Positions 286-20,277 of a DNA stretch of 64,000 nt are shown piece by piece. Below the pieces are notes generated by a model, which made no database searches, was not told the DNA's origin, and saw only the letters and a list, made by a program, of their open reading frames with translations. Positions within the stretch are counted from its first letter, which is position 1, and each line of letters opens with the position of its first letter. The stretch is taken from NCBI GenBank assembly GCA_944381935.1, contig CALWMN010000006.1, positions 92,341 through 156,340 of the forward strand, in the 5' to 3' direction. Source of the stretch: an uncultured Mediterraneibacter sp. (GTDB taxonomy: Bacteria; Bacillota; Clostridia; Lachnospirales; Lachnospiraceae). Made by a program: the position numbers and the translations under genes.

Positions 286-346
286 GGGACGTAGTAAAAT
301 TGAAGTTTACTACGTCCCAAATTAAAGTTCAGTGTGTCCCAAATTG
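286..346 (+). repeat. Interspersed repeat, copy 1 (hairpin plus 22-nt units)
   Basis: A 33-nt inverted repeat (286-318) has arms GGGACGTAGT and ACTACGTCCC, then a unit with TGTCCCAAATTG. CGTCCC at 313 and TGTCCC at 335 are exactly 22 nt apart. The same architecture occurs at 18299-18432 and, on the other strand, at 20201-20277. Here it fills the gap between two convergent genes and could act as a terminator for either side, although no T-run follows. Confidence 0.8.
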
Positions 347-347
347 A

Positions 348-587
348 CTAAAGGATGGATTTTACGTGCTCGATTTCGTCCTGTGTTGCCTTTGCAGCCG
401 GTACGTAATAGCTTCTCTCCCGTGCCGCGTCATACAGTTTTTCCTGTGACATTTCGCACTGATTCCGGATCTGTTTTAAGCACTGTTTGAGCTCTTTGTC
501 TTCCGTCTGCGGGATCATATCCCCGAACATTTTCAGTTCCCCGTTTACGCCGACCAGAGCGTCGGCTACCATTGCTTTTTCATCCAT
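348..587 (-). CDS. Spore coat protein, CotF-like
   Basis: This is a 79-residue helical protein. The C-terminal 'SYYVPAAKATQDEIE' segment matches the end of the Coat F domain, a small all-helical domain found in Bacillus CotF and many clostridial coat-like proteins. The start is supported by an AGGAGGT site 5' of the ATG. It lies 14 bp downstream of a second small helical gene (602-784), so the two probably form an operon. Function in the coat is inferred from family only; some members of this family are not strictly coat structural proteins. Confidence 0.75.
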   Translation of the reverse strand: MDEKAMVADALVGVNGELKMFGDMIPQTEDKELKQCLKQIRNQCEMSQEKLYDAARERSYYVPAAKATQDEIEHVKSIL

Positions 588-601
588 GATATTGTTACCT
601 C

Positions 602-784
602 CTACAGAAATTTCATGAGTTCCTGTTTATTTTTCATTGCGGAATCTGCCGCGTCCTGGAACAGTTTTTTGATCTCAGGGTCCTGTGCCTGGGATGCATA
701 TTCGGTCATCTTGCAGTGAGTTGTGTTATAGCCTCCGATCAGATGGCGCAGATTCTGAAGGTCAAGAATGGATATTTCTGACAT
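602..784 (-). CDS. Small helical protein, probable coat-F-like partner
   Basis: A 60-residue protein ('ISILDLQNLRHLIGGYNTTHCKM...') with two predicted amphipathic helices. It resembles the N-terminal half of coat-F-type proteins and sits directly upstream of a CotF-like gene on the same strand, with an AAAGGAGG site before the ATG. No catalytic motif is visible. The pairing suggests the two make one helical assembly, but this is inference. Confidence 0.6.
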   Translation of the reverse strand: MSEISILDLQNLRHLIGGYNTTHCKMTEYASQAQDPEIKKLFQDAADSAMKNKQELMKFL

Positions 785-827
785 GTCTGTTTTCCTCCTT
801 TAAAAGAAATAATAATTGAAACATGGT

Positions 828-1562
828 TCAGTCGTTATTATGTCCGGCATTTGTGTTCTTTATGAGTGAATGAGCGATAAATTCATGAAAAAGGGTCCGC
901 ATTTCCGGGGAAGTCCGGTACATACATTCTGGATGCCACTGTACGCCGATTGCGAAAGGATGGTCCGAGAGTTCGACCGCTTCTATGGCGCCGTCCTGGG
1001 AGCGGGCACTGACCAGTATATCTTTTCCCGGAGTGTTGACGGACTGATGGTGGAAGCTGTTCACATAGAGCGTGGACCCGATATACTGGCGAAGCCTGCT
1101 GCCGCGCTCTGTGCGGATGCGGTGGCTGATGTCGCTGCGGGAAGCAGACTGCTGCATGTGATCCAGCATTTTTTCTCCGGGGATCAGATTCATGTCCTGC
1201 CAGATACTCCCTCCGCACGCAACGCTTAAGATCTGCATCCCCCGGCAGATGGCGAAGACAGGTTTACCTGTTGTGAGAATTTTCTTCATCAGGCGGATCT
1301 GGAACAGATCTACCGTGATGCTCGTCCTTCCGTTCCCTTTCTTCGGTTCCTCGCCGAACAGAAGCGGGGTGATGTCCCCGCCGCCGCAGAAGAGAAAGCC
1401 GTCGCAGAGTCCGGTATACTGCTCGAGGATGCGGTCGCTCCTGACCAGCGGGAGAATGACCGGCAGACCTTTTGAGTAGCGGACTGCCTGGATATAGGGG
1501 TTCGTGACAAACTGGCGGTTCCCGGTGAACCCGCAGACAACGATTCCGATGGTTGGCTCCAT
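828..1562 (-). CDS. Class I glutamine amidotransferase, PuuD-like (peptidase C26)
   Basis: 244 residues, the normal length for gamma-glutamyl-gamma-aminobutyrate hydrolase-type enzymes. The nucleophile elbow is FAICRGMQ with Cys106; the catalytic His210 and Glu212 are in GVQWHPE; 'FCGGGDITP' near residue 58 is the oxyanion strand typical of PuuD relatives. The family hydrolyses gamma-glutamyl amides in the cytoplasm, for instance in putrescine degradation. No other polyamine genes are nearby, so the substrate is open. An AAAGGAG site precedes the ATG at 1562. The gene ends 43 bp upstream of the coat-like pair and may be cotranscribed with it. Confidence 0.85.
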   Translation of the reverse strand: MEPTIGIVVCGFTGNRQFVTNPYIQAVRYSKGLPVILPLVRSDRILEQYTGLCDGFLFCGGGDITPLLFGEEPKKGNGRTSITVDLFQIRLMKKILTTGKPVFAICRGMQILSVACGGSIWQDMNLIPGEKMLDHMQQSASRSDISHRIRTERGSRLRQYIGSTLYVNSFHHQSVNTPGKDILVSARSQDGAIEAVELSDHPFAIGVQWHPECMYRTSPEMRTLFHEFIAHSLIKNTNAGHNND

Positions 1563-1799
1563 AAAAAACTCCTTTGCTTATCATGAAATATCAGACCACA
1601 AAATTCTAAAATCTGTCCATATGACGTATCATAGACTATGTAAGGAAATGGAAAATTATGCATGGTGTTCAACTGGTAAAGCAATCAGGCAAAGGAAGGG
1701 AGGTACAGAGAATTTTATTGTGATATGGAAATGAGTGAGCTATAATATGCTTAACGGCAAAAGAAACCGGCGGTACGGGAAAAAAAGGAGTTGAAGCTG

Positions 1800-2348
1800 G
1801 ATTACCCGAAGAGGAGTTCATCCGGCAGGATGATTCCTGCAGATATATGAAAGAGATCCACGAGATGGCAGTGACAGGAAAAAGCATTTCCGCAGCGATG
1901 GGGACAGAGATGCCAATTCCGGATTGGGACGACATCCTGATTCTGGGGGCACAGCTTGACCCCAGAATCAGGATGAGGATGCACCCGAGAAGTACATATT
2001 TGAGTATGTGGGCAATCTCTACAGCGTGACGCCTGAGAATTTGAGAAATGCGGACGCCATAGAGTCAAGATCGCTGCGGGAAGAATCGAGAGGGACCTCG
2101 CCTTCTGCGTATATGCGGAGCCGGGATGTGCCCTATGGGGATCGCGACCCAGGACGAGGATCTCAGAGAGCGGCTTCACGAGGACGCTGCGGCAGCCAAT
2201 GTGGCAAATTCCCTGAATGTATCGCTTGAGGAACTGAAGATGTTTGCCCGGATTACGGGCCATGAAAGGCTGCATGGCCTTTATGCGGAGGACCTGTGTA
2301 CGGTCAGCAGGGAGGAACAGTGAGTTTACCAATATTCCCCATGCATAA
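1800..2348 (+). pseudogene. Remnant of FMN-binding glutamate synthase-like gene
   Basis: Pieces of one long protein survive in order but in changing frames. 'EEEFIRQDDSCRYMKEIHE' and 'MAVTGKSISAAMGTEMPIP' (about 1808-1955) are followed by a deletion, then KYIFEYVGNLYSVTPENLR (about 1992-2045), VKIAAGRIERDLAFCVYAEP in another frame (about 2068-2127), and after another deletion CPMGIATQDEDLRERLHEDA (2126-2185) through to LEELKMFARITGH. A final frameshift near 2320 gives EFTNIPHA and a stop at 2346-2348. These match, in order, glutamate synthase-related FMN proteins of about 500 residues common in Clostridia. Two or more internal deletions and frameshifts make it a clear pseudogene. The preceding 1563-1799 shows nothing I can name. 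Confidence 0.8.
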
Positions 2349-2373
2349 CAGATAAGGAGGGAAGAAGCAGGGA

Positions 2374-3501
2374 ATGCAGTGGATTGACATGCATTGTGAT
2401 ACGTTAAGCGAGATATGGAGAGGGAACGCACAGTCTCTGGAACACAACGGACTGTGCGTTGACCTGGAGAGGCTGAAGAAAGCAGGGGCGAAGACACAGT
2501 TCTTCGCCTGTTTTGTAAATGCATCAGATTATGTGGAAAGAACGGCTGAAAGCTATGCGGATGGTTTTCGTCATCCCTCTTTTGGAGAATCTGTTTTCAG
2601 CAGTGAAGTATGGGAGCATGCCTGGAGGGATGTTCTCAGGATGACAGAGCTTGCGCATGCATCGGAGGGCAGGATGTTTCATGTCATAGGGAACCTGCAG
2701 GAGGCAGGGGATGCCGGTGGGAAGTGCCCGGTGCCCGGACAGGGTTTTCCCGGCATACAGGGGGTCCTGACGGTGGAGGAGGGAGGCGTCCTGAACGGCA
2801 GCCTTAACCGGCTGGAGGAGCTTTATGAGAGAGGAATCCGTCTGATTACCCTGACCTGGAACTATGAGAACTGTATCGGCAGCCCCAACAGCCGTAAACC
2901 GGATGTGATGGAACGGGGATTGAAGCCTTTCGGGATTGAAGCGGTGGAGCGGATGAATGAACTTGGTATGGCGATCGATGTCTCCCACCTCTCGGACGGA
3001 GGATTCTGGGACTGTATCCGGTACAGCCGGGTCCCGGTCGCGGCATCCCACTCAAATGCCAGAAGCCTGTGCCCCCATCCGAGAAATCTTTCGGACGAAA
3101 TGCTCAGGGCATTGGGAGAAAAAGGCGGAGTTGCCGGCGTAAATTTCTATTCCGCCTTTTTGAGAGAGAAGGATGGGAACAGGGCGGGGGCTGAAATAAC
3201 AGATATTGTGCGGCATATCAGACGGATGATGGAGAAAGCCGGGGAAGAAGCTGTAGCCCTGGGGACGGATTTCGACGGATTTGAACGAGAGGCGCTTCCG
3301 GATGGGATCAGAGACGTCAGGGATATGGAAAAGATCTGGGAGGAAATGCGGAAGGATGGGATTACCCCCAGACAGATCGATAAGATCGCTTCAGGGAACG
3401 TCAGGCGGGTGATGAGGGAAGTGTGGAGCCGGGGCAGAAAAAGATCATGGCAGAAAGCAGTAAATGAACATTCCCTTTCTTACTGTGATATGCTAAAATA
3501 G
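2374..3501 (+). CDS. Membrane dipeptidase family (M19) peptidase
   Basis: 375 residues. The N-terminal HCDT motif (His7, Asp9) is the first zinc-ligand pair of renal-dipeptidase-like enzymes; DVSHLSDGGFWD, the SHSNARSLCPHPRNLSDE block and GTDFDGFE are the other conserved M19 blocks supplying metal ligands and the catalytic acid. The family cleaves dipeptides, often with a C-terminal D-residue. No signal peptide is seen, so it is probably cytoplasmic despite the family name. A GGAGGGAAG site precedes the ATG. It follows a pseudogene and precedes a uracil permease, with no evident pathway link. Confidence 0.9.
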   Translation: MQWIDMHCDTLSEIWRGNAQSLEHNGLCVDLERLKKAGAKTQFFACFVNASDYVERTAESYADGFRHPSFGESVFSSEVWEHAWRDVLRMTELAHASEGRMFHVIGNLQEAGDAGGKCPVPGQGFPGIQGVLTVEEGGVLNGSLNRLEELYERGIRLITLTWNYENCIGSPNSRKPDVMERGLKPFGIEAVERMNELGMAIDVSHLSDGGFWDCIRYSRVPVAASHSNARSLCPHPRNLSDEMLRALGEKGGVAGVNFYSAFLREKDGNRAGAEITDIVRHIRRMMEKAGEEAVALGTDFDGFEREALPDGIRDVRDMEKIWEEMRKDGITPRQIDKIASGNVRRVMREVWSRGRKRSWQKAVNEHSLSYCDMLK

Positions 3502-3516
3502 AAAACGGTATTGGTA

Positions 3517-3545
3517 TACAGGGTGCAGGAGAACTGTGCCCTGTA
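3517..3545 (+). promoter_or_regulatory. Stem-loop in uraA leader
   Basis: TACAGGGTGCAG (3517-3528) pairs along 12 bp, with two wobbles, to CTGTGCCCTGTA (3534-3545) around the loop GAGAA. No T-run follows, so it is not an intrinsic terminator. It lies 37 nt before the uracil permease start. I do not recognise the PyrR binding-loop consensus in it. Confidence 0.5.
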
Positions 3546-3582
3546 CACTTTGGCATAGGAAGTGAGAGAAGGAGGACGAGGA

Positions 3583-4842
3583 ATGGAAAACAAAAGAATC
3601 ATACAGGTGGAGGAAAAGGTCCCTTTTAAACTGCTTGTACCCTTGAGCATCCAGCACATGTTTGCCATGTTTGGCGCGTCTGTGCTGGTTCCCTTTGTGT
3701 TTGGGATCAATCCGGCGGTCGTGCTGTTTATGAACGGTGTGGGAACATTGCTGTTTATCCTGATCACGAAAGGGAGGGCTCCTGCCTATCTGGGATCCAG
3801 CTTTGCCTTTCTGGCTCCTGCGGGGATCGTGATCTCAAAGTGGGGGTACAGCTATGCACTGGGCGGGTTTGTGGCAGTCGGTTTTCTGGGATGCATCCTG
3901 GCGTTGATTATCTATAAATTCGGTTCGGACTGGATCAATATTGTGCTTCCGCCTGCAGCTATGGGACCGGTCGTGGCCCTTATCGGCCTGGAGCTTGCCG
4001 GGACGGCGGCGTCCAATGCGGGCCTGGCAGACGAAGTGACAGACGTAAAAAACGTCGTCGTTTTCCTGGCGACACTCCTCACTGCCGTTCTCGGGTCGGT
4101 AGTGTTCAGGGGTTTCTTATCTGTCATCCCGATTCTGGTTGCAATCATAGTGGGATACATTGCGGCGCTTGCATGCGGGATTGTTGATTTCTCAGAAGTG
4201 GCGGCAGCGTCTCTCTTCTCGGTCCCGAACTTCTCCATGCCGAAGTTTAAGTGGGAGGCAATTGTAATCATCCTTCCCGTCCTGCTTGTGATTACGTCCG
4301 AGCATATCGGGCACCAGATCGTAACGGGCAAGATCGTGGGACGGGATCTGTTAAAGGATCCGGGGCTCCACAGGTCCCTGTTTGCCGATAATTTTTCCAC
4401 CATGCTTTCGGGTATAATCGGCTCTGTGCCGACCACGACTTACGGGGAGAACATCGGGGTTATGGCGATGACGAAGGTGTACAGTGTATATGTGATCGGC
4501 GGGGCGGCAGTCCTGTCCATCATCTGTTCCTTCATCGGGAAGATGACAACCCTGATCAATACGATTCCAGGACCGGTGATCGGCGGGATTTCCTTTCTTC
4601 TGTACGGGATGATCGGAACATCGGGCATCCGCATCCTTGTGGAGTCCCAGGTAGATTACGGCAGGTCCAGGAACATGGCGATGACGTCTGTTATCTTTGT
4701 TGTGGGACTTTCCGGGATCAATGTCCAGTTCGGAAGCATCCAGCTTACAGGAATGGTCCTGGCATGTGTGGTGGGGATGCTCATGGGACTGATGTTCTTT
4801 GCATTTGACAAGCTGAACCTGACAAATGACAGGGAAGGATAA
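3583..4842 (+). CDS. uraA: Uracil permease (NCS2 family)
   Basis: A 419-residue polytopic membrane protein that moves uracil, or possibly xanthine, with protons. Typical NCS2 landmarks are 'LSIQHMFAMFGASVLVP' at the N terminus, GSSFAFLAPAG in the middle and the signature TTTYGENIGVMAMTKVYS, where the Glu of 'GEN' contacts the base. The start is placed at ATG 3583 because GAAGGAGG lies 8-15 nt upstream; an in-frame GTG at 3562 would put this site inside the gene. The gene ends in an intrinsic terminator. UraA rather than xanthine permease is favoured by the 'TYGENIGV' form. Confidence 0.88.
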   Translation: MENKRIIQVEEKVPFKLLVPLSIQHMFAMFGASVLVPFVFGINPAVVLFMNGVGTLLFILITKGRAPAYLGSSFAFLAPAGIVISKWGYSYALGGFVAVGFLGCILALIIYKFGSDWINIVLPPAAMGPVVALIGLELAGTAASNAGLADEVTDVKNVVVFLATLLTAVLGSVVFRGFLSVIPILVAIIVGYIAALACGIVDFSEVAAASLFSVPNFSMPKFKWEAIVIILPVLLVITSEHIGHQIVTGKIVGRDLLKDPGLHRSLFADNFSTMLSGIIGSVPTTTYGENIGVMAMTKVYSVYVIGGAAVLSIICSFIGKMTTLINTIPGPVIGGISFLLYGMIGTSGIRILVESQVDYGRSRNMAMTSVIFVVGLSGINVQFGSIQLTGMVLACVVGMLMGLMFFAFDKLNLTNDREG

Positions 4843-4856
4843 GAGCTGAGCTGACA

Positions 4857-4902
4857 GCGATCTGCCGAGGATAGACGATCTGTGCCCGGCAGGTCGCTTT
4901 TT
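4857..4902 (+). terminator. Intrinsic terminator after uraA
   Basis: GCGATCTGCCG (4857-4867) pairs with CGGCAGGTCGC (4887-4897, one G-U) and is followed by TTTTT. Confidence 0.8.
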
Positions 4903-5459
4903 CAACGGTTTTTCAAGGCGGTCTTTTTCATCCCGATGATACTGTCCGTGTCAGCCGTATCCCTCCTGTGGAACTTCATCTGTTTTCCGACAGACAAAGG
5001 AATCTAAAATACACTGCCTACCCATATCGGCCTTGCGGGGCTGACACCGGTTTTGGCATCTCTACATCCCAATGCTGTGAGACTCTGTCAAAATGTCGGT
5101 CATCATAGTAATTACGGGCGTCCTCAAAATATTTGATATTTGATACTGTATATATCCTCACCCCTTCCGGGGGAACGGATAATTCCACCATTGTACCTGC
5201 GCTGCTTATGTACAATGAGGCGTACCGGTACGGGCATTATGGAACCGGAAGCGCTATTGCGACCGTTATCCTTGTGCTCAGCACGGCTGTGTCCATCCTC
5301 AGCCTGAGGCTGATGGACAGGCGCGAAAGCGTAGAATATTAGGAGGAAGCAATGATCCTAGAAGGGCTGGCATATGGCAGGGATTTGTCTGACGACGATC
5401 CCGGTGATTATCGCAAATGTCCTGTTTCAAAAAATCTTAAGAAAATGTTTTAAAAATTC
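4903..5459 (+). pseudogene. Decayed sugar ABC transporter permeases (MalF- and MalG-type remnants)
   Basis: Three protein fragments of binding-protein-dependent sugar permeases lie in order. 4903-5008 encodes FFKAVFFIPMILSVSAVSLL, a MalF-type membrane segment ending in a stop. 5091-5342 encodes MSVIIVITGVLKIFD then, after a frameshift at a duplicated ATTTGAT near 5130-5143, DTVYILTPSGGTDNSTIVPA through YGTGSAIATVILVLS to a stop, which is the C terminus of such a permease. 5374-5459 encodes 'MAGICLTTIPVIIANVLFQK', the end of a MalG-type partner. The parts between are missing. No binding protein or ATPase is adjacent. Confidence 0.78.
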
Positions 5460-5548
5460 ACCTGTCATATGGACTATACTTTTCCTGTGTCCGGGGCAGG
5501 GATGTGTTCCGGCCCTATATTTACAGGGAAGCAGGAGGCGACAGACAG

Positions 5549-6472
5549 ATGCCGGGAGAGGTGCGGAGGCGACAGCAGGGGAAGAAAAGGCTGAACAGAA
5601 GAGGCAGGAGAAAGCGGCGGATACGAAAGCTTATCAGGCTGGCTGTCCTGGCAGTGCCGCTCTTTGTCGCAGCAGTGTTTTTCAAAAATCTGTCGGGAGA
5701 GTATTCCGTGCTGACAGATTCTGGGATCAAGACTGACTCCGGCACCCATCAGACCTGGAATCAGCCGGAACTTCAGAGTATTTCCGACGGGGAGGTGAGA
5801 AACGCCCTTGCGGAGATGGCGCAGACAAACGGGAAGGTGCGGCAGGTACTGGAACAGGCGGACCGGTATCCTGCCAGCCTCCTGGAGCTACTGGCACACA
5901 ACGAAGAGACGGTGGATTTTGTGCTGGATTATGCGGAAAAAGAGGACCGCGCGCCGGCGGAGGATATCGGAGCAGTCACAGCCGGTGAAATTCCCCTCCT
6001 CATCCAGTGGGATGAACGATGGGGATATGCGCGGTACGGGGACAATATGATTGCGGTCAACGGCTGTGGCCCCACTGTGGTTGCAATGGTGGCGGCAGGA
6101 CTGACAGGGGACAGCGGCATTACTCCTTACAAGGTGGCGCAGTACGCCGAGGCACAGGGATATTATACGGGAGAGTCAGGCACCAGCTGGGAGCTGATGA
6201 CAGAAGGGGCGCAGAACTTCGGCGTCCGAGGAGAGGAAATCAGCCTGAGTGGGAGTGAGGTTTTCGCAGAGCTTGAGAGCGGACATCCGGTCATATGCAG
6301 CATGCGACCAGGAGACTTCACGACGACAGGGCACTTCATCGTGCTGACCGGTGTGGAGGACGGAAAGATAAAAGTCAACGATCCGAACAGCAGGAAGCGC
6401 AGCGAAACCCTATGGGATTATGATACGCTGGAATATCAGATCAATAACCTCTGGGCGTTTCAGGGTGAATAA
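5549..6472 (+). CDS. Membrane-anchored C39-like cysteine peptidase
   Basis: 307 residues. A very basic cytoplasmic tail (about residues 5-28) precedes one membrane segment (about 29-46), then an extracellular linker and a C39_2-type papain-like domain from about residue 148. Catalytic residues visible are Cys173 in NGCGPT, His262 in TGHFIVLTG and Asp278 in NDPNS. The family includes bacterial surface peptidases of unknown substrate. The start at 5549 is chosen for the AGGAGG 11 nt upstream; the longer frame from 5504 lacks one. It overlaps the convergent MFS gene by 13 nt. Confidence 0.8.
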   Translation: MPGEVRRRQQGKKRLNRRGRRKRRIRKLIRLAVLAVPLFVAAVFFKNLSGEYSVLTDSGIKTDSGTHQTWNQPELQSISDGEVRNALAEMAQTNGKVRQVLEQADRYPASLLELLAHNEETVDFVLDYAEKEDRAPAEDIGAVTAGEIPLLIQWDERWGYARYGDNMIAVNGCGPTVVAMVAAGLTGDSGITPYKVAQYAEAQGYYTGESGTSWELMTEGAQNFGVRGEEISLSGSEVFAELESGHPVICSMRPGDFTTTGHFIVLTGVEDGKIKVNDPNSRKRSETLWDYDTLEYQINNLWAFQGE

Positions 6473-7875
6473 GGTTTCAGATGGCTTTCCACTCCGAAAA
6501 TCGAGATTGCCAGCAGTACTACAGCTCCGGCTGTCATCCAGAGGAAGGAGACATTCATACCGTGCATCAGCGCATTGTCGCCGTAAGAATCGGCAGAAGC
6601 TGCGCTCACGGTTGTCATGATCCCCACAAAGACCGCCGAGCCGATGGATCCGGCGATTGTGCGAAAAGAAGTCAGCAGGGAGGACGCATCTGCCACTTTC
6701 TTAAGGTCCACATTGCCCGTACCCCATGTAAGCAGAGGCATCATCAGGCTTCCGATGGAAAGATTTCGGATCACGTTAAGTGACGCGGCAACCCAGAGCG
6801 GCGTCTCCATAGTGATGAAGGACATCCCGATATTGCTGATCACAAGAGCCGCAGAGCCGATCACAAAAAGCTTTTTGATTCCCATTTTGTCATACATTCT
6901 GCCTGCAAAAGGGCTGACAACGGCAGTGGCAAGAGAACCCGGCAGCGTGACCAGCCCTGAGACAACAGCGGAGTACCCCATCACGCTCTGGACATACAGG
7001 GGCATCATGACAGAGGATCCCATCATGACCAGATAGAGGACCATGCTGGCAATCACACTCACAGCATAATTTTTGTTGCCCAGGATCCTGACATCCAGGA
7101 AAGGTGTATCCAGTCCGCACTGTCTGCCGATGAAAAACGTGCATACGACGATACCGATGAGCAGCGGGAGACCTGCCTGCACGCTGATCAGCCCGTAGCT
7201 GCTGATGTTCCCGATTCCAAGGGTGATACCGCCGAAAGCCAGGATGCTTTCCGCAAAAGAAAGCATATCGAATTTTTTGTCCTGAAGCTCCAGGACATCT
7301 TCAAATGCAAAGCTGGAAATAGCAAAAGAGAATATCATGATAATGAGGACCAGATAAAAGATGGATTTCCAGCCAAAGGCGTCGATCATCAGTCCCGCAA
7401 GCGTAGGGGCGACAATGGGTGCGGCTGTCGTGGCAAGGCCGTATGTCCCCATCATGGCTCCCTTTTTCTCAATCGGGTACATCGTCAGGATGATGACCTG
7501 CGCTGCAGACATCAAGACGCCGTTGCCGCACGCCTGCAGGATTCTCCCTGCCATCATAAGGGCGAAGCTTCTGCCCAAAATGCTGAGCAGGATACCGATG
7601 ATAAAACAGCCGATTCCCGACATGTATAATCTTTTTGTGGGAAATCGTGTGATCAGGAATGCGGTCAGCGGCAGGACCATCCCCATAGCCAGAGAATAAC
7701 CGCTTGTGACCCACTGCCCGATTGATGTGCTGACATTGAAATACTCCACTACATTGGGAAGAGCCGTAGTCATGGCAGTTGAGAGTATCGATGTTGCAAT
7801 GCCGGAGACAACCAGGTTGAGAAAAATCAGAGTTCGTTTCCGGTCAGTTAATCTTGAAGTATTACTGTGGTTCAT
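6460..7875 (-). CDS. MFS drug transporter, DHA2-like
   Basis: 471 residues with many hydrophobic segments. 'NVVEYFNVSTSIGQWVTSGY' with 'LPLTAFLITRFPTKRLY' is the loop 2-3 region of EmrB/QacA-type exporters, which use the proton gradient to expel drugs or metabolites. The start overlaps the end of the upstream marR gene by 14 nt, so the pair is translationally coupled; marR-MFS pairs are typical of locally regulated efflux. No membrane fusion partner is present, as expected for a Gram-positive. Substrate unknown. Confidence 0.85.
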   Translation of the reverse strand: MNHSNTSRLTDRKRTLIFLNLVVSGIATSILSTAMTTALPNVVEYFNVSTSIGQWVTSGYSLAMGMVLPLTAFLITRFPTKRLYMSGIGCFIIGILLSILGRSFALMMAGRILQACGNGVLMSAAQVIILTMYPIEKKGAMMGTYGLATTAAPIVAPTLAGLMIDAFGWKSIFYLVLIIMIFSFAISSFAFEDVLELQDKKFDMLSFAESILAFGGITLGIGNISSYGLISVQAGLPLLIGIVVCTFFIGRQCGLDTPFLDVRILGNKNYAVSVIASMVLYLVMMGSSVMMPLYVQSVMGYSAVVSGLVTLPGSLATAVVSPFAGRMYDKMGIKKLFVIGSAALVISNIGMSFITMETPLWVAASLNVIRNLSIGSLMMPLLTWGTGNVDLKKVADASSLLTSFRTIAGSIGSAVFVGIMTTVSAASADSYGDNALMHGMNVSFLWMTAGAVVLLAISIFGVESHLKPYSP

Positions 7876-8457: not shown

Positions 8458-8471
8458 GGCATGTTACCTGA

Positions 8472-11356: not shown

Positions 11357-11373
11357 TCCCCCTCTGATACATA

Positions 11374-13171: not shown

Positions 13172-13695
13172 AGATTTTAGTAGTGGTGGATATGCAGAAT
13201 GATTTTATTGACGGGGCGCTTGGCACCGGGGAGGCGGTTCGGATCGTCCCCGGGGCGGCAGAGCAGATCAGGAATTTTGCCGGGAAAGTCATTGCCACCC
13301 GCGATACCCACGGTGAAAACTACATGGATACGCAGGAGGGAAAGAAACTTCCGGTCATGCATTGCGTGAAAGGGACCGGCGGATGGGAGATCAGGAGCGA
13401 GATTGATGCGGCGCTGGAGGAAAGAGGAGCTGCCAGGATTGACAAACCGACTTTTGGCAGTGTGGAACTTGGCAGTTATATAAAGGGGCTGGACCGTGCG
13501 GAGGATCCTGTGGAGGAGATCACGCTGATCGGATTGTGTACGGATATCTGTGTGATTTCAAATGCGCTTTTGCTGAAGGCATATCTCCCGGAAGTGCCGG
13601 TCAAAGTGATCGCGTCCTGCTGTGCCGGGGTGACGCCCCAGAGCCATGCGCAGGCTCTTGAGGCGATGAAGATGTGCCAGATTGAGGTCGTTTAA
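13168..13695 (+). CDS. Isochorismatase-family hydrolase, probable nicotinamidase
   Basis: 175 residues. The triad is visible: Asp8 in VVDMQNDF, Lys93 in DKPTFGS and Cys128 in GLCTDICV, with the metal-side 'TRDTHGENY' at residues 44-52. This pattern fits nicotinamidase-like amidases that turn nicotinamide into nicotinate for NAD salvage, although other amide substrates occur in the family. It is translationally coupled to the OGG gene, an unusual pairing without clear functional meaning. Confidence 0.85.
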   Translation: MKILVVVDMQNDFIDGALGTGEAVRIVPGAAEQIRNFAGKVIATRDTHGENYMDTQEGKKLPVMHCVKGTGGWEIRSEIDAALEERGAARIDKPTFGSVELGSYIKGLDRAEDPVEEITLIGLCTDICVISNALLLKAYLPEVPVKVIASCCAGVTPQSHAQALEAMKMCQIEVV

Positions 13696-13742
13696 CTGCC
13701 AGGATACAGGGCAAAGAGAAGAAAGGCAGAGGAGGTGAGGCA

Positions 13743-14039
13743 ATGCAAAACACAGTGGAAATGCTGGATGAACTGCAGAACAGGGCGCTCAGTGATGAGG
13801 CCCTTAAGAAGAAATTCTTAAAAACGCGGGATGATGACGATGCCCTCGGGGCATTTTGCCAGGTGTGCCGCAGCCTGGGATATGAGATATATCCAATGGA
13901 TATCGTGCAGGCAGGAGATGAATTTTATGCAACGATGAAGCGCAGTACGAATGGGGGAGGAGAAAACTCCCCGGTGCTGGACGGCGAGGATGATCTGTAT
14001 GAGATGTTTATCGCCAGTCTGGAACAGAGCGGGGTGTGA
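13743..14039 (+). CDS. Uncharacterised small acidic protein, Nif11-like helices
   Basis: 98 residues, acidic, no membrane segment. The first half, 'ALSDEALKKKFLKT...ALGAFCQVCRSLGYEI', has the spacing of the Nif11 domain found in some peptide leaders and in stand-alone clostridial proteins. There is no Gly-Gly cleavage site and no maturation enzyme nearby. A GGAGGTGAGG site precedes the ATG. The call to Nif11 is tentative. Confidence 0.6.
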   Translation: MQNTVEMLDELQNRALSDEALKKKFLKTRDDDDALGAFCQVCRSLGYEIYPMDIVQAGDEFYATMKRSTNGGGENSPVLDGEDDLYEMFIASLEQSGV

Positions 14040-14079
14040 TCCCTGTATCAGAGGCAAGAAAAGACAGGAGGCAGAGAAA

Positions 14080-14607
14080 ATGGAGGCAACACTGAAAGAT
14101 TTAAAGACGAGAAGGAGTATACGTTCTTATAAGCCGGAACAGATCAAAGAGGAGGAGCTTGGAAAGATTCTGGAGGCAGGGACATATGCACCTACGGGAA
14201 TGGGAAAACAGTCCCCGAAAATCGTTGTTGTACAGGATAAGGAGACGAGGGATCTTCTATCCCGGCTGAACGCAAAGTATTTCCCGACCCAGACAGATGG
14301 GGATCCGTTCTACGGAGCCCCCACTGTTCTGGTGGTTCTGGCGTCTAAAGAACGGCCAACCTGTGTGGAGGACGGAACCCTTGTCATGGGCAACCTTATG
14401 AATGCGGCCCACGCGGTGGGAGTAGGTTCCTGCTGGATCCACAGGGCGAGAGAAGTATTTGACTCTCCCGAGGGGAAAGAACTTTTGAGAAACTGGGGGA
14501 TTGAAGGGGACTATATCGGTGTGGGGCACTGCATCCTCGGCTATCCGGAAGGAGAGATCCCTGAACCTAAGCCGAGAAAAGATGACTACATAGTATATGT
14601 AAGGTGA
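14080..14607 (+). CDS. Nitroreductase-family flavoprotein
   Basis: 175 residues. 'LKTRRSIRSYKPEQI' at the N terminus is the FMN-phosphate-binding start of nitroreductases; 'APTGMGKQSPKIVVV' is the conserved middle, and 'GVGHCILGYPEGE' the C-terminal flavin site. These enzymes reduce nitro groups, quinones or flavins with NAD(P)H as homodimers. The start at 14080 has AGGAGG 8 nt upstream; an earlier in-frame start would run through the preceding gene. Confidence 0.9.
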   Translation: MEATLKDLKTRRSIRSYKPEQIKEEELGKILEAGTYAPTGMGKQSPKIVVVQDKETRDLLSRLNAKYFPTQTDGDPFYGAPTVLVVLASKERPTCVEDGTLVMGNLMNAAHAVGVGSCWIHRAREVFDSPEGKELLRNWGIEGDYIGVGHCILGYPEGEIPEPKPRKDDYIVYVR

Positions 14608-14708
14608 GTGAAGATGGAGGGGTTCCTTCGTGTGGGAGATGAAGGCGCTTTTGGGTCAGCCCTGCAGGGATGTGCGCGGTAATTATAATTTGGGGGCAGG
14701 TAAAAGGA

Positions 14709-15230
14709 ATGGAACGGGAGATTTTGATCGGGAGGGCACCCCGGGAGTCGTTAGAAGAGGCGGAACAGATCGTCAGGGCGGCAGAGAGACAGATGGCAGA
14801 CAGAAGCTGGTTTGTGGCGGGGAGCCTGGAAGAATTTGACCGGTGGATGGAGAGGGGAAAGGGACTGCTCTATCTTGCCAGAGAGAAGGGCACCGGAAAG
14901 TGCGCAGCGATGTTTTTCGTCATTCTGCCGGGGATGGAACCGGAAAACCTGGGGTATGATATCGGCATGGGAAACGCAGGGCTTGAAAGGACAGCCCTCA
15001 TGGATACGATCGCGGTTATGCCGGAATTTCGCGGACAGAGGCTTCAGTACCGTATGATGCAGAGGGTGGAGAGGGAGCTTAAAGAGATGGGGTACCGGCA
15101 TCTGATGTGTACCGTTCATCCTGACAACAGGTTCAGCAGGGATAACGTGGAATGCCAGGGATATCAGAAGGTGATGACGAAAGACAAATACGGAGGTTAT
15201 TTAAGGGACATCTGGCTGAAGGAAATCTGA
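14709..15230 (+). CDS. GNAT-family acetyltransferase
   Basis: 173 residues from ATG 14709. The acetyl-CoA site is in 'MDTIAVMPEFRGQRLQYRMM'; the usual RxxGxG/A becomes R-G-Q-R-L-Q, lacking the second glycine but keeping the strand-helix geometry. The C terminus 'LMCTVHPDNRFSRDNVECQG' fits acetyltransferases acting on small molecules or peptides. A GGGGGCAGG stretch lies upstream but spacing is long, so the exact start is uncertain and an ATG at 14670 is possible. Confidence 0.75.
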   Translation: MEREILIGRAPRESLEEAEQIVRAAERQMADRSWFVAGSLEEFDRWMERGKGLLYLAREKGTGKCAAMFFVILPGMEPENLGYDIGMGNAGLERTALMDTIAVMPEFRGQRLQYRMMQRVERELKEMGYRHLMCTVHPDNRFSRDNVECQGYQKVMTKDKYGGYLRDIWLKEI

Positions 15231-15324
15231 CAGTGCCAGCTTACTTTTGTCGCTTTCAAGTAACAAAGATTGCGATTGACTAATCCTGCATGTATTTCCT
15301 AAAATAGAGAAAAGGAGGGATACT

Positions 15325-15537
15325 ATGCAGGCGTTGTCAAAGGCAAAACCGGGTGAATGTTATACGATAAAGTGGATGTTCGGACTGCCGGATGTGGTGG
15401 AATACTTGCATAGCCATGATGTCAGGGAAGGCAGTACGATCCGGCTGATCCAGCGCTGCCGTGACAGTGTGCTCATAGGAGTGCAGGATATGAGATTCGT
15501 CATAGGGGACGAGATCGCGGATCGGATAAAAGTATGA
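15325..15537 (+). CDS. FeoA-like SH3-domain protein
   Basis: 70 residues with the FeoA pattern: 'AKPGECYTIKWMFG', then 'HDVREGSTIRLIQ' and 'EIADRIKV' at the end. FeoA domains regulate or assist the iron transporter FeoB. No feoB is within this window, so it may be an orphan or a stand-alone metal-linked regulator. A GAGAAAAGGAGGG site precedes the ATG and an intrinsic terminator follows, so it is transcribed on its own. Confidence 0.7.
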   Translation: MQALSKAKPGECYTIKWMFGLPDVVEYLHSHDVREGSTIRLIQRCRDSVLIGVQDMRFVIGDEIADRIKV

Positions 15538-15592
15538 CATAACCAACTCTTTCAGAACAGACAGGGATTGGAAGTGCAGAGGAAGCTTTTGG

Positions 15593-15629
15593 GGGATTGC
15601 CGCATGGAGATGTGCGGCAATCCCTTTTT
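15593..15629 (+). terminator. Intrinsic terminator after the FeoA-like gene
   Basis: GGGATTGCCGCA (15593-15604) pairs perfectly with TGCGGCAATCCC (15613-15624), followed by TTTTT. Confidence 0.88.
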
Positions 15630-15718
15630 CGGCAGTTTCTTAATTTTTCCTGAAATTGTGGCATATGGCAGTGAATGATGGTAAAATAAGGGTCAGTGGG
15701 AAGAAAGGAGACCGAGAC

Positions 15719-16969
15719 ATGGGAAGTTATATGGAGATGCTCGCGAAACTTGCGAAAGAGGCTTCAAGAGAAGCGGCGAAGCTTAGCACGGATGCCAAGA
15801 ACAGCGGTCTTCTGGCTGTGGCGGACGAGCTGGTTGCACAGCAGGGACTGATTCTGGAGGAAAACAGAAAAGATGTGGAGGCGGCGCAGGCAAAAGGGAC
15901 AAAACAATCCCTGGTTGACAGACTTGCGCTCACGGAGAAGAGAATTGCTGATATGGCTGATGGATTAAGGCAGATTGCGGCTTTGGATGACCCGATCGGG
16001 GAGGTGCTGCGCATGAAGGTACGCCCCAATGGACTCAGGGTTGGGCAGAAGAGAGTTCCGCTCGGAGTGGTGGGCATCATCTATGAATCCCGTCCGAATG
16101 TAACGGCAGACGCTTTTGGTCTCTGTTTTAAGACGGGCAATGCGGCAATCCTCCGGGGCGGGAGCGATGCGATCAATTCCAACCTTGCCATTGTCCGGGC
16201 AGTGAAGGCGGGACTGCGCAAGGTGAGGCTTTCGCAGGATCTGATCCTGCTTGTGGAAGATACGGGCAGGGAAGTGGTAAATGAGATGATGAAGATGCAT
16301 GGCTGGATCGATGTGCTGATTCCCAGGGGAGGGGCAGGGCTGATCGCGAATGTGGTGGAGAACAGTACGGTTCCTGTGATCGAGACAGGGACGGGGAACT
16401 GCCATATCTATGTGGATGCCTCGGCGGATATTTCAATGGCGGCAGATATCGTGGAAAATGCCAAGACACAGAGGATGGGCGTGTGCAACGCCTGTGAGTC
16501 TCTGGTCGTCCATTCCGGCATCATTGACGAAGCGCTGCCCCGCATTGTGAGGAAGCTGAAAGCGCATGGCGTGGAGATCAGAGGCGACGAGAGGGCGCAG
16601 GCTGTCAGTCCCAAGGTCATCCCGGCATCTGAGGAAGACTGGGGAACGGAGTATCTGGACGCGGTCATTTCGGTGAAGACTGTGGACAGCATCGATGAGG
16701 CAATCGGGCATATCAACCGGTATAATACAGGACATTCCGAGTCTATCATAACAAAGGACTATGGCAATGCGTTAAAGTTCCAGGACGAGATTGATGCGGC
16801 AGCCGTATATGTGAACGCGTCGACAAGATTTACGGACGGATTTGAGTTCGGATTTGGTGCTGAGATCGGGATCAGTACCCAGAAGCTGCATGCAAGGGGA
16901 CCGATGGGTCTGGAAGCGCTGACGACAACGAAATATATCATTTTCGGAAACGGACAGATCAGAAAGTAG
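15719..16969 (+). CDS. proA: Gamma-glutamyl phosphate reductase
   Basis: 416 residues, the family's standard length. ProA reduces gamma-glutamyl phosphate to glutamate semialdehyde with NADPH in proline synthesis. The catalytic Cys256 is in [23 protein letters not shown] and '[11 protein letters not shown]' bind the cofactor and substrate. The start at 15719 has AAAGGAG upstream; an earlier in-frame ATG at 15656 adds a non-homologous tail. proB, its usual partner, is not in the window. A terminator separates it from the arginine operon. Confidence 0.95.
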
Positions 16970-16988
16970 AGAGAGCAAAAGAGCAAAG

Positions 16989-17044
16989 AAGAACTCTTCA
17001 CATGACTTCTGCAGGGAAGCGGAGTCTGGGAAGGGTTCTTTTTT
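16989..17044 (+). terminator. Intrinsic terminator after proA
   Basis: AAGAACTCTTC (16989-16999) pairs with GAAGGGTTCTT (17030-17040, one G-U), enclosing a smaller GACT/AGTC hairpin, and ends in T6. Confidence 0.75.
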
Positions 17045-17132
17045 GCGGCCGGACAGGGGCGGCAGCGGATTTGTCTTTGTAATAGCTGAGAAGAAAAAGG
17101 TCGATGGAAAAAGAAGCCTGAGAAAATTCTTG

Positions 17133-17169
17133 TTGCATAATATGCAGAAAAGATGTATGATTATGCAAG
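17133..17169 (+). promoter_or_regulatory. argC operon promoter with overlapping ARG box
   Basis: TTGCAT (17133-17138) and TATGAT (17156-17161) have a 17-nt spacer. The -35 and -10 each lie in an AT-rich half site, TTGCATAATATGCA and TGTATGATTATGCA, resembling ARG boxes. ArgR binding would cover both promoter boxes. Confidence 0.72.
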
Positions 17170-17255
17170 TAATAGATAAGAGAAACACTTTACTTCTCAG
17201 GAATTGTGGTATATGATTATCAGAGGATTTGATCCGGGAAAGGATGGAGGAGAGA

Positions 17256-18296
17256 ATGATTAAGGTTGGAATCATCGGAGCTACCGGCTACGCAGGCGGC
17301 GAGCTTGTGAGAATATTGACAGGACATAAAGATGCAGAAATTAAATGGTATGGATCAAGGAGCTATATCGACAAAAAATATGCAGATGTATACCGGAATA
17401 TGTTCCAGATCGTGGATGCGGTCTGCATGGACGATAATATGGAAGAGCTGTCATCCCAGGTGGACGTGATCTTTACAGCGACTCCCCAGGGACTGTGCGC
17501 TTCCCTTGTGAGCGAAGAGATCCTTTCCAGGACGAAGATCATAGACTTGAGCGCAGATTTCCGTTTGAAGGATGTCGCGGTATATGAAGAGTGGTATAAA
17601 ATTCAGCACAAGGCTCCGCAGTTTATCGGAGAGGCCGTTTACGGACTGTGTGAAGTGAACCGGGAGGATATCAGGAAGGCGCGGCTTGTGGCAAATCCCG
17701 GATGCTATACCACATGTTCGATTCTGACGGCGTATCCGCTGGCAAAGGAAGGACTGATCGATCTGGATACCCTGATCATCGATGCAAAATCAGGGACGTC
17801 AGGCGCAGGGCGGGGGGCAAAACTGCCTAACCTTTACTGTGAGGTAAATGAAAATATCAAAGCGTACGGCGTTGCAAGCCACCGGCATACGCCGGAGATC
17901 GAGGAACAGCTCGGCTACGCGGCAGGAGAAAAAGTGGTGCTTAACTTTACACCCCACCTTATCCCCATGAACAGAGGGATTCTGGCAACAGAATACGCAA
18001 AACTGACAAAAGACATAAGCTGGGAAGAAGTCAAAGCTGTCTATGACAAATATTATGCTGATGAAACATTTGTGCGCGTACTGGAAAAAGATATCTGTCC
18101 GGAGACAAAATGGGTGGAAGGAAGCAATTTCGTGGACATCGGGTTTAAGATCGATACAAGGACCGGGAGGATCATTATGATGGGTGCGATTGATAACCTG
18201 GTAAAAGGCGCGGCTGGACAGGCTGTCCAGAATATGAACCTGCTGTTCGGACTGGAGGAAAATGAAGGTCTGGATCTGGTTCCGATGTTCCCGTAA
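17256..18296 (+). CDS. argC: N-acetyl-gamma-glutamyl-phosphate reductase
   Basis: 346 residues. ArgC reduces N-acetylglutamyl phosphate to the semialdehyde. GATGYAGGEL near the N terminus binds NADPH; the catalytic Cys150 is in NPGCYTT. The start at 17256 (MIKVGII) follows GGAGGAGAG; the frame can be read from 17229 but that adds a non-homologous stretch. It is the first gene of the arginine operon. A repeat element with a very stable hairpin begins 3 nt after its stop codon and could limit readthrough into argJ. Confidence 0.96.
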   Translation: MIKVGIIGATGYAGGELVRILTGHKDAEIKWYGSRSYIDKKYADVYRNMFQIVDAVCMDDNMEELSSQVDVIFTATPQGLCASLVSEEILSRTKIIDLSADFRLKDVAVYEEWYKIQHKAPQFIGEAVYGLCEVNREDIRKARLVANPGCYTTCSILTAYPLAKEGLIDLDTLIIDAKSGTSGAGRGAKLPNLYCEVNENIKAYGVASHRHTPEIEEQLGYAAGEKVVLNFTPHLIPMNRGILATEYAKLTKDISWEEVKAVYDKYYADETFVRVLEKDICPETKWVEGSNFVDIGFKIDTRTGRIIMMGAIDNLVKGAAGQAVQNMNLLFGLEENEGLDLVPMFP

Positions 18297-18298
18297 TC

Positions 18299-18432
18299 GC
18301 AATCGGGGACGTAGTGGAATTTAATTCTACTACGTCCCCGATTGCAGACCGGTATGTCCCAAATTGAAATTCACTGTGTCCCAAAATGCAGGCCAGTGTG
18401 TCCCAAATTGACATCCGGCGTGTCCCGAAATG
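18299..18432 (+). repeat. Interspersed repeat, copy 2 (long hairpin plus five 22-nt units)
   Basis: The hairpin spans 18299-18345: arms of 17 bp pair without mismatch and a further five pairs close a 3-nt loop. CGTCCC at 18333 and TGTCCC at 18355, 18377, 18399 and 18421 are exactly 22 nt apart, giving an array of units with consensus TGTCCCAAATTG plus a variable 10-nt tail. The core 18306-18338 is the same 33-nt hairpin as in the other copies. It sits between argC and the acetyltransferase gene. Confidence 0.88.
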
Positions 18433-18477
18433 TTTTTTGTATGAACTTAGAGCAGAAGAATGGAGTTGTTTTTTGCA

Positions 18478-18924
18478 ATGATACGTGTTATGACGATAGA
18501 GGATTATGATGGAGTATATGCCCTGTGGAAGAAGATAAAGGGATTTGGCATACGCAGTATTGACGATTCAAGGGAGGGTGTGGACCGCTTCCTTAAGAGG
18601 AATCCCACGACCAGCGTAGTTGCAGTCGAGAATGGGAGAATCGTGGGAAGCATTTTATGCGGGCATGACGGCAGACGGGGATGCCTGTACCATGTCTGCG
18701 TTGATGAGGCATATCGGCGGCGAGGGATTGGGAAAGATATGGTTGTCCATGCAATGAAGGCTCTAAAGGAAGAAAAGATCAATAAAGTGTCACTGATTGC
18801 ATTTACAAAAAATGATATTGGAAATGCGTTCTGGAATACGATCGGCTGGACAGAACGCCTGGATCTGAATTATTATGATTTTACTTTAAATGAAGAAAAT
18901 ATTACGGCATTTAATGAGCAGTGA
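18478..18924 (+). CDS. GNAT-family acetyltransferase inside the arginine operon
   Basis: 148 residues from ATG 18478. 'YHVCVDEAYRRRGIGKDMVV' holds the canonical acetyl-CoA loop R-R-x-G-I-G. It lies between argC and argJ on the same strand. ArgJ already supplies N-acetylglutamate, so a backup glutamate N-acetyltransferase role is possible but unproven; the fold also suits many other amines. The ribosome site is weak (GGAG 12 nt upstream) and an ATG at 18460 is an alternative start. The repeat element ends 45 nt upstream. Confidence 0.8.
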   Translation: MIRVMTIEDYDGVYALWKKIKGFGIRSIDDSREGVDRFLKRNPTTSVVAVENGRIVGSILCGHDGRRGCLYHVCVDEAYRRRGIGKDMVVHAMKALKEEKINKVSLIAFTKNDIGNAFWNTIGWTERLDLNYYDFTLNEENITAFNEQ

Positions 18925-18951
18925 AGGAAAGCTTACAGGAGAAGGGAAGAG

Positions 18952-20181
18952 ATGAAAATGGAGACGATTAAAGGAGGCGTAACTGCGGCGAAGGGATTTC
19001 AGGCGGCCGCTGCTGTGGCAGGAATTAAGTATCAGGGGAGAACTGATATGGCGCTCATTTACAGCGAAAAACCATGTAAAACGGCAGGGACTTTTACAAC
19101 AAATGTTGTGAAAGCGGCGCCTGTAAAATGGGACAGAACTATTGTAGAGAAAAGAATAAAATCTCAGGCTGTTATCGTAAATTCCGGAATTGCCAATGCC
19201 TGTACCGGCGATGAGGGGATGGCATATTGCAGGGAAACGGCGCGCGAAGCGTCAAAAGCACTCGGAATTGAGGAGCATGGCGTACTGGTTGGTTCCACAG
19301 GTGTAATCGGGATGCAGCTTCCCATAGAGAAAGTGAAAAATGGCATCAGGATGCTGGCGTCAGGCAGGAAAGCAGATATCGAAAGCGGAACAGAGGCAGC
19401 GAAAGCGATTATGACTACGGACACTGTGGAAAAGCAGGCGGCCGTCAAGATTGAAATTGCGGGAAAAACCGTGACGATCGGCGGCATGGCGAAAGGATCC
19501 GGCATGATCCATCCAAATATGTGCACGATGCTGGCATTTATTACAACGGATGCCAAGATTTCAAAGAAAGCGCTCCAAAAAGCACTCAGCGCAGATGTAG
19601 AAGATACCTACAATATGATTTCCGTGGATGGCGACACATCCACGAACGACACCGTTCTCCTTCTTGCCAACGGGATGGCAGGAAATAAAAAAATTAAATG
19701 CGGTACGCCGGAATTTGAACAGTTTCAGAAAGCCCTTCATTATGTAAATGAAACACTGGCAAAAAAAATGGCAGGGGACGGAGAAGGAGCGACAGCTCTG
19801 TTTGAGGCAAAAATCATCGGGGCATCCACGAAAGAACAGGCAAAAATTCTTGCAAAATCAATTGTATGCTCAAATCTGACGAAAGCGGCGATCGCCGGAC
19901 ATGATGCAAATTGGGGAAGAATCTTATGCGCAATGGGATACTCAGGTGTTGAATTTAATCCCGAAAAAGTGGATCTTCACTTTAAAAGCGCTGCCGGGGA
20001 ATTAAAAATTATTGAAAATGGAACGGCAGTGGATTACAGCGAAGAAAAGGCGACAGAAATTCTGTCAGAGCCGGAAGTGACAGTGATTGCAGATATAAAA
20101 GAGGGGACAGAGACAGCATCAGCCTGGGGGTGCGACCTGACACATGGATACATTGAAATAAACGCAGATTACAGAAGCTGA
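18952..20181 (+). CDS. argJ: Glutamate N-acetyltransferase / amino-acid acetyltransferase
   Basis: 409 residues. ArgJ moves the acetyl group from N-acetylornithine to glutamate and, in bifunctional forms, also makes N-acetylglutamate from acetyl-CoA. The protein self-cleaves before its nucleophile threonine in KGSGMIHPNMCTMLAF; here Thr192 is preceded by Cys191 where many members have Ala. GSTGVIG is the oxyanion region. A purine-rich site lies before ATG 18952. The second repeat copy of this operon separates it from argB. Confidence 0.95.
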   Translation: MKMETIKGGVTAAKGFQAAAAVAGIKYQGRTDMALIYSEKPCKTAGTFTTNVVKAAPVKWDRTIVEKRIKSQAVIVNSGIANACTGDEGMAYCRETAREASKALGIEEHGVLVGSTGVIGMQLPIEKVKNGIRMLASGRKADIESGTEAAKAIMTTDTVEKQAAVKIEIAGKTVTIGGMAKGSGMIHPNMCTMLAFITTDAKISKKALQKALSADVEDTYNMISVDGDTSTNDTVLLLANGMAGNKKIKCGTPEFEQFQKALHYVNETLAKKMAGDGEGATALFEAKIIGASTKEQAKILAKSIVCSNLTKAAIAGHDANWGRILCAMGYSGVEFNPEKVDLHFKSAAGELKIIENGTAVDYSEEKATEILSEPEVTVIADIKEGTETASAWGCDLTHGYIEINADYRS

Positions 20182-20200
20182 CAGATAAAAAAATCAAAAA

Positions 20201-20277
20201 GGGACAGGGCAAAATTCAATTTGGGACACACTGAAGCTCCTTTTGGGACGTAGTGAAATTGAATTTTACTACGTCCC
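20201..20277 (-). repeat. Interspersed repeat, copy 3 (reverse orientation)
   Basis: Reading the minus strand, a 33-nt hairpin (20277-20245) is followed by units at 22-nt spacing; on the plus strand GGGAC starts at 20201, 20223 and 20245. The hairpin ends only 3 nt before the GGAGG of argB, so it could mask or expose that ribosome site. Confidence 0.85.

What the first reader, a model, noticed from the sequence alone, without database searches (positions are those of the whole stretch)
286..20277. New-looking interspersed repeat: 33-nt hairpin followed by units with an exact 22-nt period
Three intergenic sites (286-346, 18299-18432, 20201-20277) share a hairpin with arms GGGACGTAGT/ACTACGTCCC and units TGTCCCAAATTG plus a variable 10-nt tail. 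Unit starts are exactly 22 nt apart in all copies (313/335; 18333/18355/18377/18399/18421; 20201/20223/20245 inverted). The right arm of the hairpin serves as the first unit. Copy 2 extends the hairpin to 22 bp, so pairing is preserved while bases vary. I do not recognise it as a known REP, BIME or MITE family.
Basis: seen in the sequence. Interest (0 to 1): 0.72.

Follow-up and report, generated by a model that had tools for sequence, protein, structure and literature searches.

The report
Transposase-linked repeats with 22-base rhythm
These repeats look like long-lived offshoots of a mobile DNA element whose apparently domesticated transposase gene sits elsewhere in the genome between the same repeats; their units keep an exact 22-base spacing in related bacteria, which would let one test what such tamed transposases do.

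Summary
In detail: three intergenic sites carry a 33-nt hairpin plus units exactly 22 nt apart. The genome has 15 distinct hairpins. One pair brackets its only Y1 (HUH) transposase match, a REP-associated tyrosine transposase (RAYT) relative, so this is the end sequence of a RAYT-type element and its non-autonomous copies. Among 58 genus genomes (Mediterraneibacter-like), 32 of 32 with the cognate gene have at least 15 model hits; 5 of 26 without do, four of them with the locus unassembled. The gene lies beside glyS in all 31 genomes read. Near hairpins, 217 of 224 unit spacings are exactly 22 nt. Copies occur as single hairpins, half ends and ~228-nt two-ended elements, some at orthologous places in many species. 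More distant relatives carry outward GTCCC units on both sides in 54 of 71 loci, with covarying stems. Closest known kind: TIRtron/TIRYT. The phased array is the new variant. The core stem shows no compensatory change. Mobilisation, binding and a role for the phase are inferred.

The parts
286..318 (+). Copy 1 hairpin (outward unit + first inward unit), 14 nt between it and the ORF ending at 271
313..346 (+). Copy 1 units at 313 and 335 (22-nt spacing)
18299..18345 (+). Copy 2 hairpin (core 18306-18338) with extended stem, just behind argC (ORF ends 18296)
   Evidence: orthologous site filled in 22 of 41 genus loci read
18333..18432 (+). Copy 2 array: units at 18333, 18355, 18377, 18399, 18421
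20245..20277 (-). Copy 3 hairpin, ending 2 nt before AGGAGG (20280-20285), the likely Shine-Dalgarno of argB (ATG at 20292)
   Evidence: orthologous site filled in 23 of 30 genus loci read, one of them degenerate
20195..20228 (-). Copy 3 further units (GGGACA at 20223 and 20201 on the + strand); the innermost is the TGTCCCTTTTTG type that stands on the 3' side of the RAYT gene

Best explanation
The three sites are non-autonomous copies of the ends of a RAYT-type (Y1 HUH single-strand transposase) element of the TIR-flanked kind (TIRYT/TIRtron). The unit carries [C/T]GTCCC. The outermost unit of an end points outward; one to five units (in the sites read) point inward at 22-nt steps. The outward unit and the first inward unit together are the 33-nt hairpin. 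Shown: the anatomy, the RAYT-like gene between two such ends, co-occurrence with that gene, the 22-nt phase, presence or absence of copies between species, and copies as half ends, ~228-nt two-ended elements and single hairpins. Inferred: the protein recognises hairpin and units in single-stranded DNA, cuts and rejoins strands with its tyrosine, and has spread and maintained copies in trans; units about two helical turns apart let several protomers bind one face of the DNA; the array 23 nt before the RAYT start codon may let it control itself. The gene now behaves as a vertically inherited, selected host gene, and many copies are old residents of operons.
For: Own genome: one PF01797 match, between hairpin-arrays in inverted orientation. 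Same layout in all 24 close in-genus homologues read, two of them on cut contigs with one side only, in L083 (55% identity) and, with some units degenerate, in L084 (46%). At least 15 model hits in 32 of 32 genomes with the gene, 5 of 26 without; four of the five have no assembled glyS-peptidase locus (32 of 32 against 1 of 22 when they are set aside). Spacing 217 of 224 exactly 22 nt. HxH and catalytic Tyr invariant in 20 and in 36 homologues; dN/dS median 0.13 over 106 pairs; best fold and profile match is E. coli RAYT, 4er8. Clean empty argC site in close relatives without visible target duplication. Outward units on both sides of the gene in 54 of 71 more distant loci against 1.6% of 551 control pairs.
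Against: No movement was observed, and many copies are old, so present mobility is unproven. G074 has 29 hits and, at an intact glyS-peptidase locus, no gene. The locus was checked in 11 of the 26 genomes without the gene, so the exclusion of four is uneven; related genomes are not independent, so the p-values (4.8e-8; 1.5e-9) overstate. The C-terminal domain has no PDB match, so phased docking has no structural support. Cleavage sites are unknown.
Confidence: 0.85

Rival explanations
1. RNA regulatory elements: the hairpin acts in mRNA of operons (arg, pfl) as attenuator, stability element or Shine-Dalgarno mask, and selection for this keeps it.
For: Copies sit close to stops or Shine-Dalgarno sequences in operons, at orthologous places in many species; copy 3 stem reaches into the argB Shine-Dalgarno; whole-stem covariation score above 500 of 500 shuffles, from outer pairs.
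Against: The ten core pairs show no change on both sides; the array without hairpin does not fold better than shuffles (z -0.94); some copies lie between convergent ORFs (L276, L291); no Rfam family at its gathering score over the repeats (the weak miRNA-type hits are far below theirs); the same sequence brackets a transposase gene and its number follows that gene.
Confidence: 0.1
2. Operator arrays for an ordinary host transcription factor with 22-nt helical phasing, unrelated to transposition.
For: Strict 22-nt phase with conserved core and variable rest; several copies in front of genes.
Against: Copy number follows the RAYT gene; two-ended copies of near-constant size; single hairpin where relatives have the RAYT gene (G035, G078).
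Confidence: 0.05
3. The RAYT no longer mobilises anything; copies are fossils and the phase is kept by exchange among units.
For: Gene found at one place in the genus; the second rows in G076 and G014 lie beside further glyS copies and look like mixed assemblies.
Against: Unit bodies differ while spacing stays; gene under purifying selection; copies at different sites of one genome are more alike than those of different genomes, 0 of 500 permutations (base composition may contribute).
Confidence: 0.2

Closest known systems
TIRtron / TIRYT (Di Nocera et al. 2013, PMC3733652; abstract, section 16, section 17 part 1 and passages seen)
   Same: Y1 transposase of RAYT kind flanked by terminal inverted repeats other than GTAG REPs; TIR motif GGGGWSAS resembles the reversed units (up to 199 of 228 non-hairpin units fit GGGWSAS by column counts); TIR families dispersed, in dimers and clusters.
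   Different: The words Firmicutes and Clostridi* do not occur in its main text; no 22-nt phased direct array in what I saw.
TnpA-Y1 subclass 2.1 (Quentin et al. 2018, PMC6006769; abstract, section 12, section 15 part 1, section 31 and passages seen)
   Same: Long protein (median 238 aa; here 255), motifs FQ and Y-I-H-x-N-P; TIR association proposed.
   Different: The authors found no REP-like sequences for subclass 2.1; here hairpin repeats flank the gene. HuH is THFH rather than NHxH in most of the genus. Their profiles were not available, so membership is untested.
REP / REPIN / BIME with RAYT (E. coli TnpA-REP, PDB 4er8)
   Same: Fold, catalytic residues, palindromes dispersed between genes; single-copy vertical inheritance is stated for RAYTs in PMC8049555 (passage seen).
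   Different: No unpaired 5' GTAG foot: the GTAG inside GGGACGTAG is part of the stem, and the common form in distant relatives lacks it; inward units in tandem at 22 nt.
CGTC-tagged REPs (PMC3733652)
   Same: CGTC letters at a palindrome.
   Different: There CGTC is unpaired at one end and no transposase is associated; here CGTCCC is in the stem.
IS200/IS605
   Same: Y1 HUH enzyme; no target duplication visible.
   Different: Gene at one fixed locus, not multi-copy. No search for tnpB was run.

Membership tests
RAYT (REP-associated tyrosine transposase) | Y1 HUH core with HxH and catalytic Tyr | tested here: met
   PF01797 33.7 bits over cut-off 23; H60, H62, Y119 invariant
RAYT (REP-associated tyrosine transposase) | Y-x-x-x-N-P motif of class 2 | tested here: met
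   YIHMNP in the alignment; motif as given in PMC6006769
RAYT (REP-associated tyrosine transposase) | NCBIfam NF047646 cut-off (80 bits) | tested here: inconclusive
   Own protein 68.3 bits, submitted with 14 extra N-terminal residues; 3 of 8 relatives over 80
RAYT (REP-associated tyrosine transposase) | Flanked by palindromes that are dispersed in the genome | tested here: met
GTAG REP | Unpaired GTAG or GTGG at the foot of the hairpin | tested here: not met
   GTAG lies inside the stem
TIRtron / TIRYT, subclass 2.1 | Terminal inverted repeats on both sides of the gene, repeated elsewhere | tested here: met
TIRtron / TIRYT, subclass 2.1 | TIR motif GGGGWSAS | tested here: inconclusive
   Seven-base form GGGWSAS fits up to 199 of 228 non-hairpin units by column counts; the first G is often absent, and hairpin units (GGGACGT) do not fit
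TIRtron / TIRYT, subclass 2.1 | C-terminal HTH / DnaA-C-like domain | tested here: inconclusive
   Helical C-terminal region; no Pfam HTH in own protein, sub-cut-off HTH in 2 of 9 relatives; no PDB match
TIRtron / TIRYT, subclass 2.1 | Position in the published subclass profiles and tree | not testable with these tools
   Their HMMs and supplements were not available
IS200/IS605 insertion sequence | Multi-copy autonomous element | tested here: not met
   One cognate gene in 30 of 32 genomes; extra rows in G076 and G014 lie beside further glyS copies

The most novel reading that the evidence does not exclude
The RAYT-like subclass reported to lack REPs has its own REP-like substrate: an outward hairpin whose conserved GTCCC block lies in the loop and whose stem is free to covary. 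In Lachnospiraceae this has grown into helically phased 22-nt arrays that serve as multi-protomer docking platforms, so that a domesticated transposase acts as a genome-wide DNA-binding factor on arg, pfl and other operons.
Probability: 0.25. Interest if true: 0.75.

Novelty: new variant of a known kind. Interest (0 to 1): 0.56.

Why it matters
The function of domesticated RAYTs is unknown (so stated in PMC8049555, passage). Here is a lineage with one gene at one locus, 15 countable hairpins in a genome, conserved positions in recognisable operons, natural losses of gene and copies, and a strict spacing that suggests an ordered protein-DNA complex. That makes binding, cleavage and effect on host genes directly testable outside Proteobacteria. 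It also offers a substrate motif for Bacillota RAYT relatives.

Tried and rejected
Rejected: compensatory change in the ten core stem pairs (none). Rejected as evidence: a hairpin of each single 22-nt unit inside the genus. By consensus it has the register of the distant hairpins (AATTT, 11-nt loop, AAATT), but among 228 (99 after thinning) non-hairpin units that register is not among the top pairs, while unrelated registers reach z 6.5, so relatedness inflates these scores; in hairpin-arm units one pair of the register has z 3.2 (n=110), lost after thinning to 33. By the same token the outer-flank scores (z 2.4-3.5) are weak, and the best pair outside the register has z 3.5, so its sixth pair (z 3.8) is marginal. 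Rejected: a universal multiple-of-11 spacing; distant loci show 20, 22, 33-34 and other spacings. Led nowhere: plasmid and phage searches (no match); text search for the distant motif (16 papers, by titles and abstract starts on unrelated subjects; not opened); the RAYT grouping paper of Bertels 2017 is not held; C-terminal fold search.

Rows dropped or not read: hairpins were collected by a pattern near the consensus and with a unit on the right (86), thinned to 52 for A3. The stem test used the 63 of 70 distant loci with an upstream outward hit; four Lachnospiraceae loci were left out. Gene at glyS: 31 of 32 (G068 not read). argB: 30 loci read of 57 genomes with a match; argC: 41. pfl: the 30 best of 55 genomes with a match were read; the unread rest may hold empty sites, for in G024 the two flank matches abut in the hit table. 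The ten places were chosen from matches to the own two-ended copy. Model hits count both strands: 29 own hits are 15 hairpins. Over 40 genomes stricter filters apply.
Full report
What is there. The three sites are as described: hairpin 286-318 with units at 313 and 335; hairpin 18306-18338 with units at 18333, 18355, 18377, 18399 and 18421; and, inverted, hairpin 20245-20277 with units at 20223 and 20201. All steps are 22 nt. The second lies just behind argC and the third ends 2 nt before the likely argB Shine-Dalgarno. As single-stranded DNA the hairpins fold far better than shuffles (z -7 to -10), while the array of copy 2 without its hairpin does not (z -0.94). The gene names arg, pfl, glyS, peptidase are my reading of translated ORFs, not family searches.

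Re-framing the unit. The left arm of the hairpin is the same unit as the right arm in opposite orientation (GGGAC against GTCCC). An element end is one outward unit followed by one or more inward units in 22-nt steps.

The transposase. The Y1 transposase family gave one match in the own genome. It lies between two such ends, hairpins outermost, the last inward unit 23 nt before the start codon. In one search, 30 loci from 61 genomes were read: all 24 close in-genus homologues have this layout (L070 and L077 on cut contigs show one side; single unit positions are mutated in a few), with whole-unit differences in array length. Of the six distant ones, three have GTCCC repeats at other spacings, one a single hit and two none. 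All 22 complete close homologues are 255 codons, with median dN/dS 0.13 over 106 pairs. The AlphaFold model is confident (pLDDT 93.7); its best PDB match is E. coli RAYT bound to a REP hairpin (4er8, E 1e-7), also the one profile hit at E 0.01. The C-terminal helical region, predicted alone, has no PDB match.

Linkage of copies and gene. A covariance model from 52 hairpins was run on 58 genus genomes, and the gene profile on the same set. Cognate genes (above 240 bits) are in 32 genomes; six more have only a distant homologue. The 32 have 15-66 hits. Of the 26 others, five have 15 or more (G005 23, G019 34, G021 28, G074 29, G080 58) and the rest 0-12. In G005, G021 and G080 no glyS match was found, and in G019 glyS and peptidase lie at contig ends, so these four cannot be judged; without them it is 32 of 32 against 1 of 22. 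The locus was looked up in only 11 of the 26, and phylogeny is not corrected for. In G035 and G078 a single hairpin remains between peptidase and glyS, as would follow from deletion between the two palindromes; both have 12 hits. G074, G027 and G001 have no hairpin there.

Fixed address. In 31 of 32 cognate genomes read, glyS is in the same small locus, and in 30 the aminopeptidase too. The same holds for the named relatives L078-L084 and L086; L085 shows the peptidase only. The genus is taken from these names (Mediterraneibacter). Second rows in G076 and G014 lie beside further glyS copies; the one in G076 differs by some 19% along the whole stretch from the first and is probably contamination.

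Copies and their age. Own genome: 15 distinct hairpins at E <= 0.001. In one search the stricter pattern found the hairpin in 8 of 10 loci (7 sites), in each case between ORFs of at least 120 aa. The argC site is filled in 22 of 41 loci; the gene tree needs 8 changes, of which well-supported branches force at least 2. The argB site is filled in 23 of 30 loci read, one degenerate. The pflB-pflA site holds a two-ended copy in 30 of 30 loci read (gap 227-293 nt; one end degenerate in G065 and G007), but these are the best 30 of 55 matching genomes and the flanks abut in unread G024. Of ten further places chosen by similarity to the own two-ended copy, seven hold 227-229-nt two-ended copies, two 348-349-nt ones, and one near a contig end a single hairpin. 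Where close relatives differ (G064 against G035 and G074), the argC copy is present or absent cleanly, with no target duplication visible; gain or loss is not resolved.

Spacing. Of 224 consecutive same-strand GTCCC pairs up to 70 nt apart near a hairpin, 217 are at 22 nt and 2 at 44; elsewhere in the same loci 3 of 27 are at 22. Unit bodies differ, so this is a kept distance and not only recent duplication.

Stem. In 52 aligned hairpins the ten core pairs show no change on both sides; one pair varies by U-A to U-G in 11 rows. The whole 19-pair stem has a covariation score above all 500 shuffles, from outer and loop-side pairs, but pairs with double changes are no more than shuffles give (6 against 4.9).

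Concerted change. At loop positions, copies at different sites of one genome are more alike (0.789, n=232) than copies at different sites of different genomes (0.735, n=7340; 0 of 500 permutations), and more than same-site orthologues (0.747, n=1716). With tails included orthologues lead (0.676 against 0.618). Base composition may contribute.

Distant relatives. In 71 loci (L087-L157, mostly Bacillota), outward units stand within about 300 nt on both sides of the gene in 54, against 1.6% of 551 control pairs. Around the upstream unit six nested position pairs covary (5' -9 to -14 with 3' +7 to +12; z 3.8-7.7, n=63), taking the six highest places of all pairs tested; the best other pair has z 3.5. 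The common form is about five variable bases, AGAACCGTCCC, and their complement. The text search for this motif listed 16 papers, none by title on repeats. Inside the genus the short hairpin has no covariation support.

Comparison with what is known. TIRYT or TIRtron occurs in two papers of the library. Di Nocera 2013 describes such elements with TIR motif GGGGWSAS; Quentin 2018 puts most in subclass 2.1 and reports no REP-like sequences there. The protein fits the printed motifs in part. I call it a new variant of the TIRtron kind, with formal subclass membership untested.

Judgement. The element-plus-transposase reading is strong; mobilisation, cutting and the docking role of the 22-nt phase are inference. 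Effects on arg or pfl genes are possible and untested.

Noticed in passing
window 48484-48689: T-box leader (Rfam RF00230, 102 bits) in front of a threonyl-tRNA synthetase-like ORF at 48806-50737 (name is my reading).
   Followed up: partly
window 17229-21194: Arginine genes in the order argC, acetyltransferase-like ORF, argJ, argB, with two repeat copies between them (names are my reading).
   Followed up: partly
L072, L127, L131: Other RAYT-like genes carry GTCCC units at a repeated 34-nt spacing on both sides, so fixed-spacing arrays may have arisen more than once.
   Followed up: no
L357-L386 and L387-L394: The middle of many two-ended copies holds a TTTGTGCA-like stretch (seen by eye, not counted).
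   Followed up: no
G061, G062, G073, G014, G028, G029; G063, G069, G007, G071, G077, G079: Distant RAYT-like genes (about 80-215 bits) occur beside the cognate one in the first six and alone in the others; G063 and G069 have no hits to the present repeat.
   Followed up: no
L335 (G076:C77): Contig with a second glyS and RAYT about 81% identical to the first: likely contamination of that genome.
   Followed up: partly
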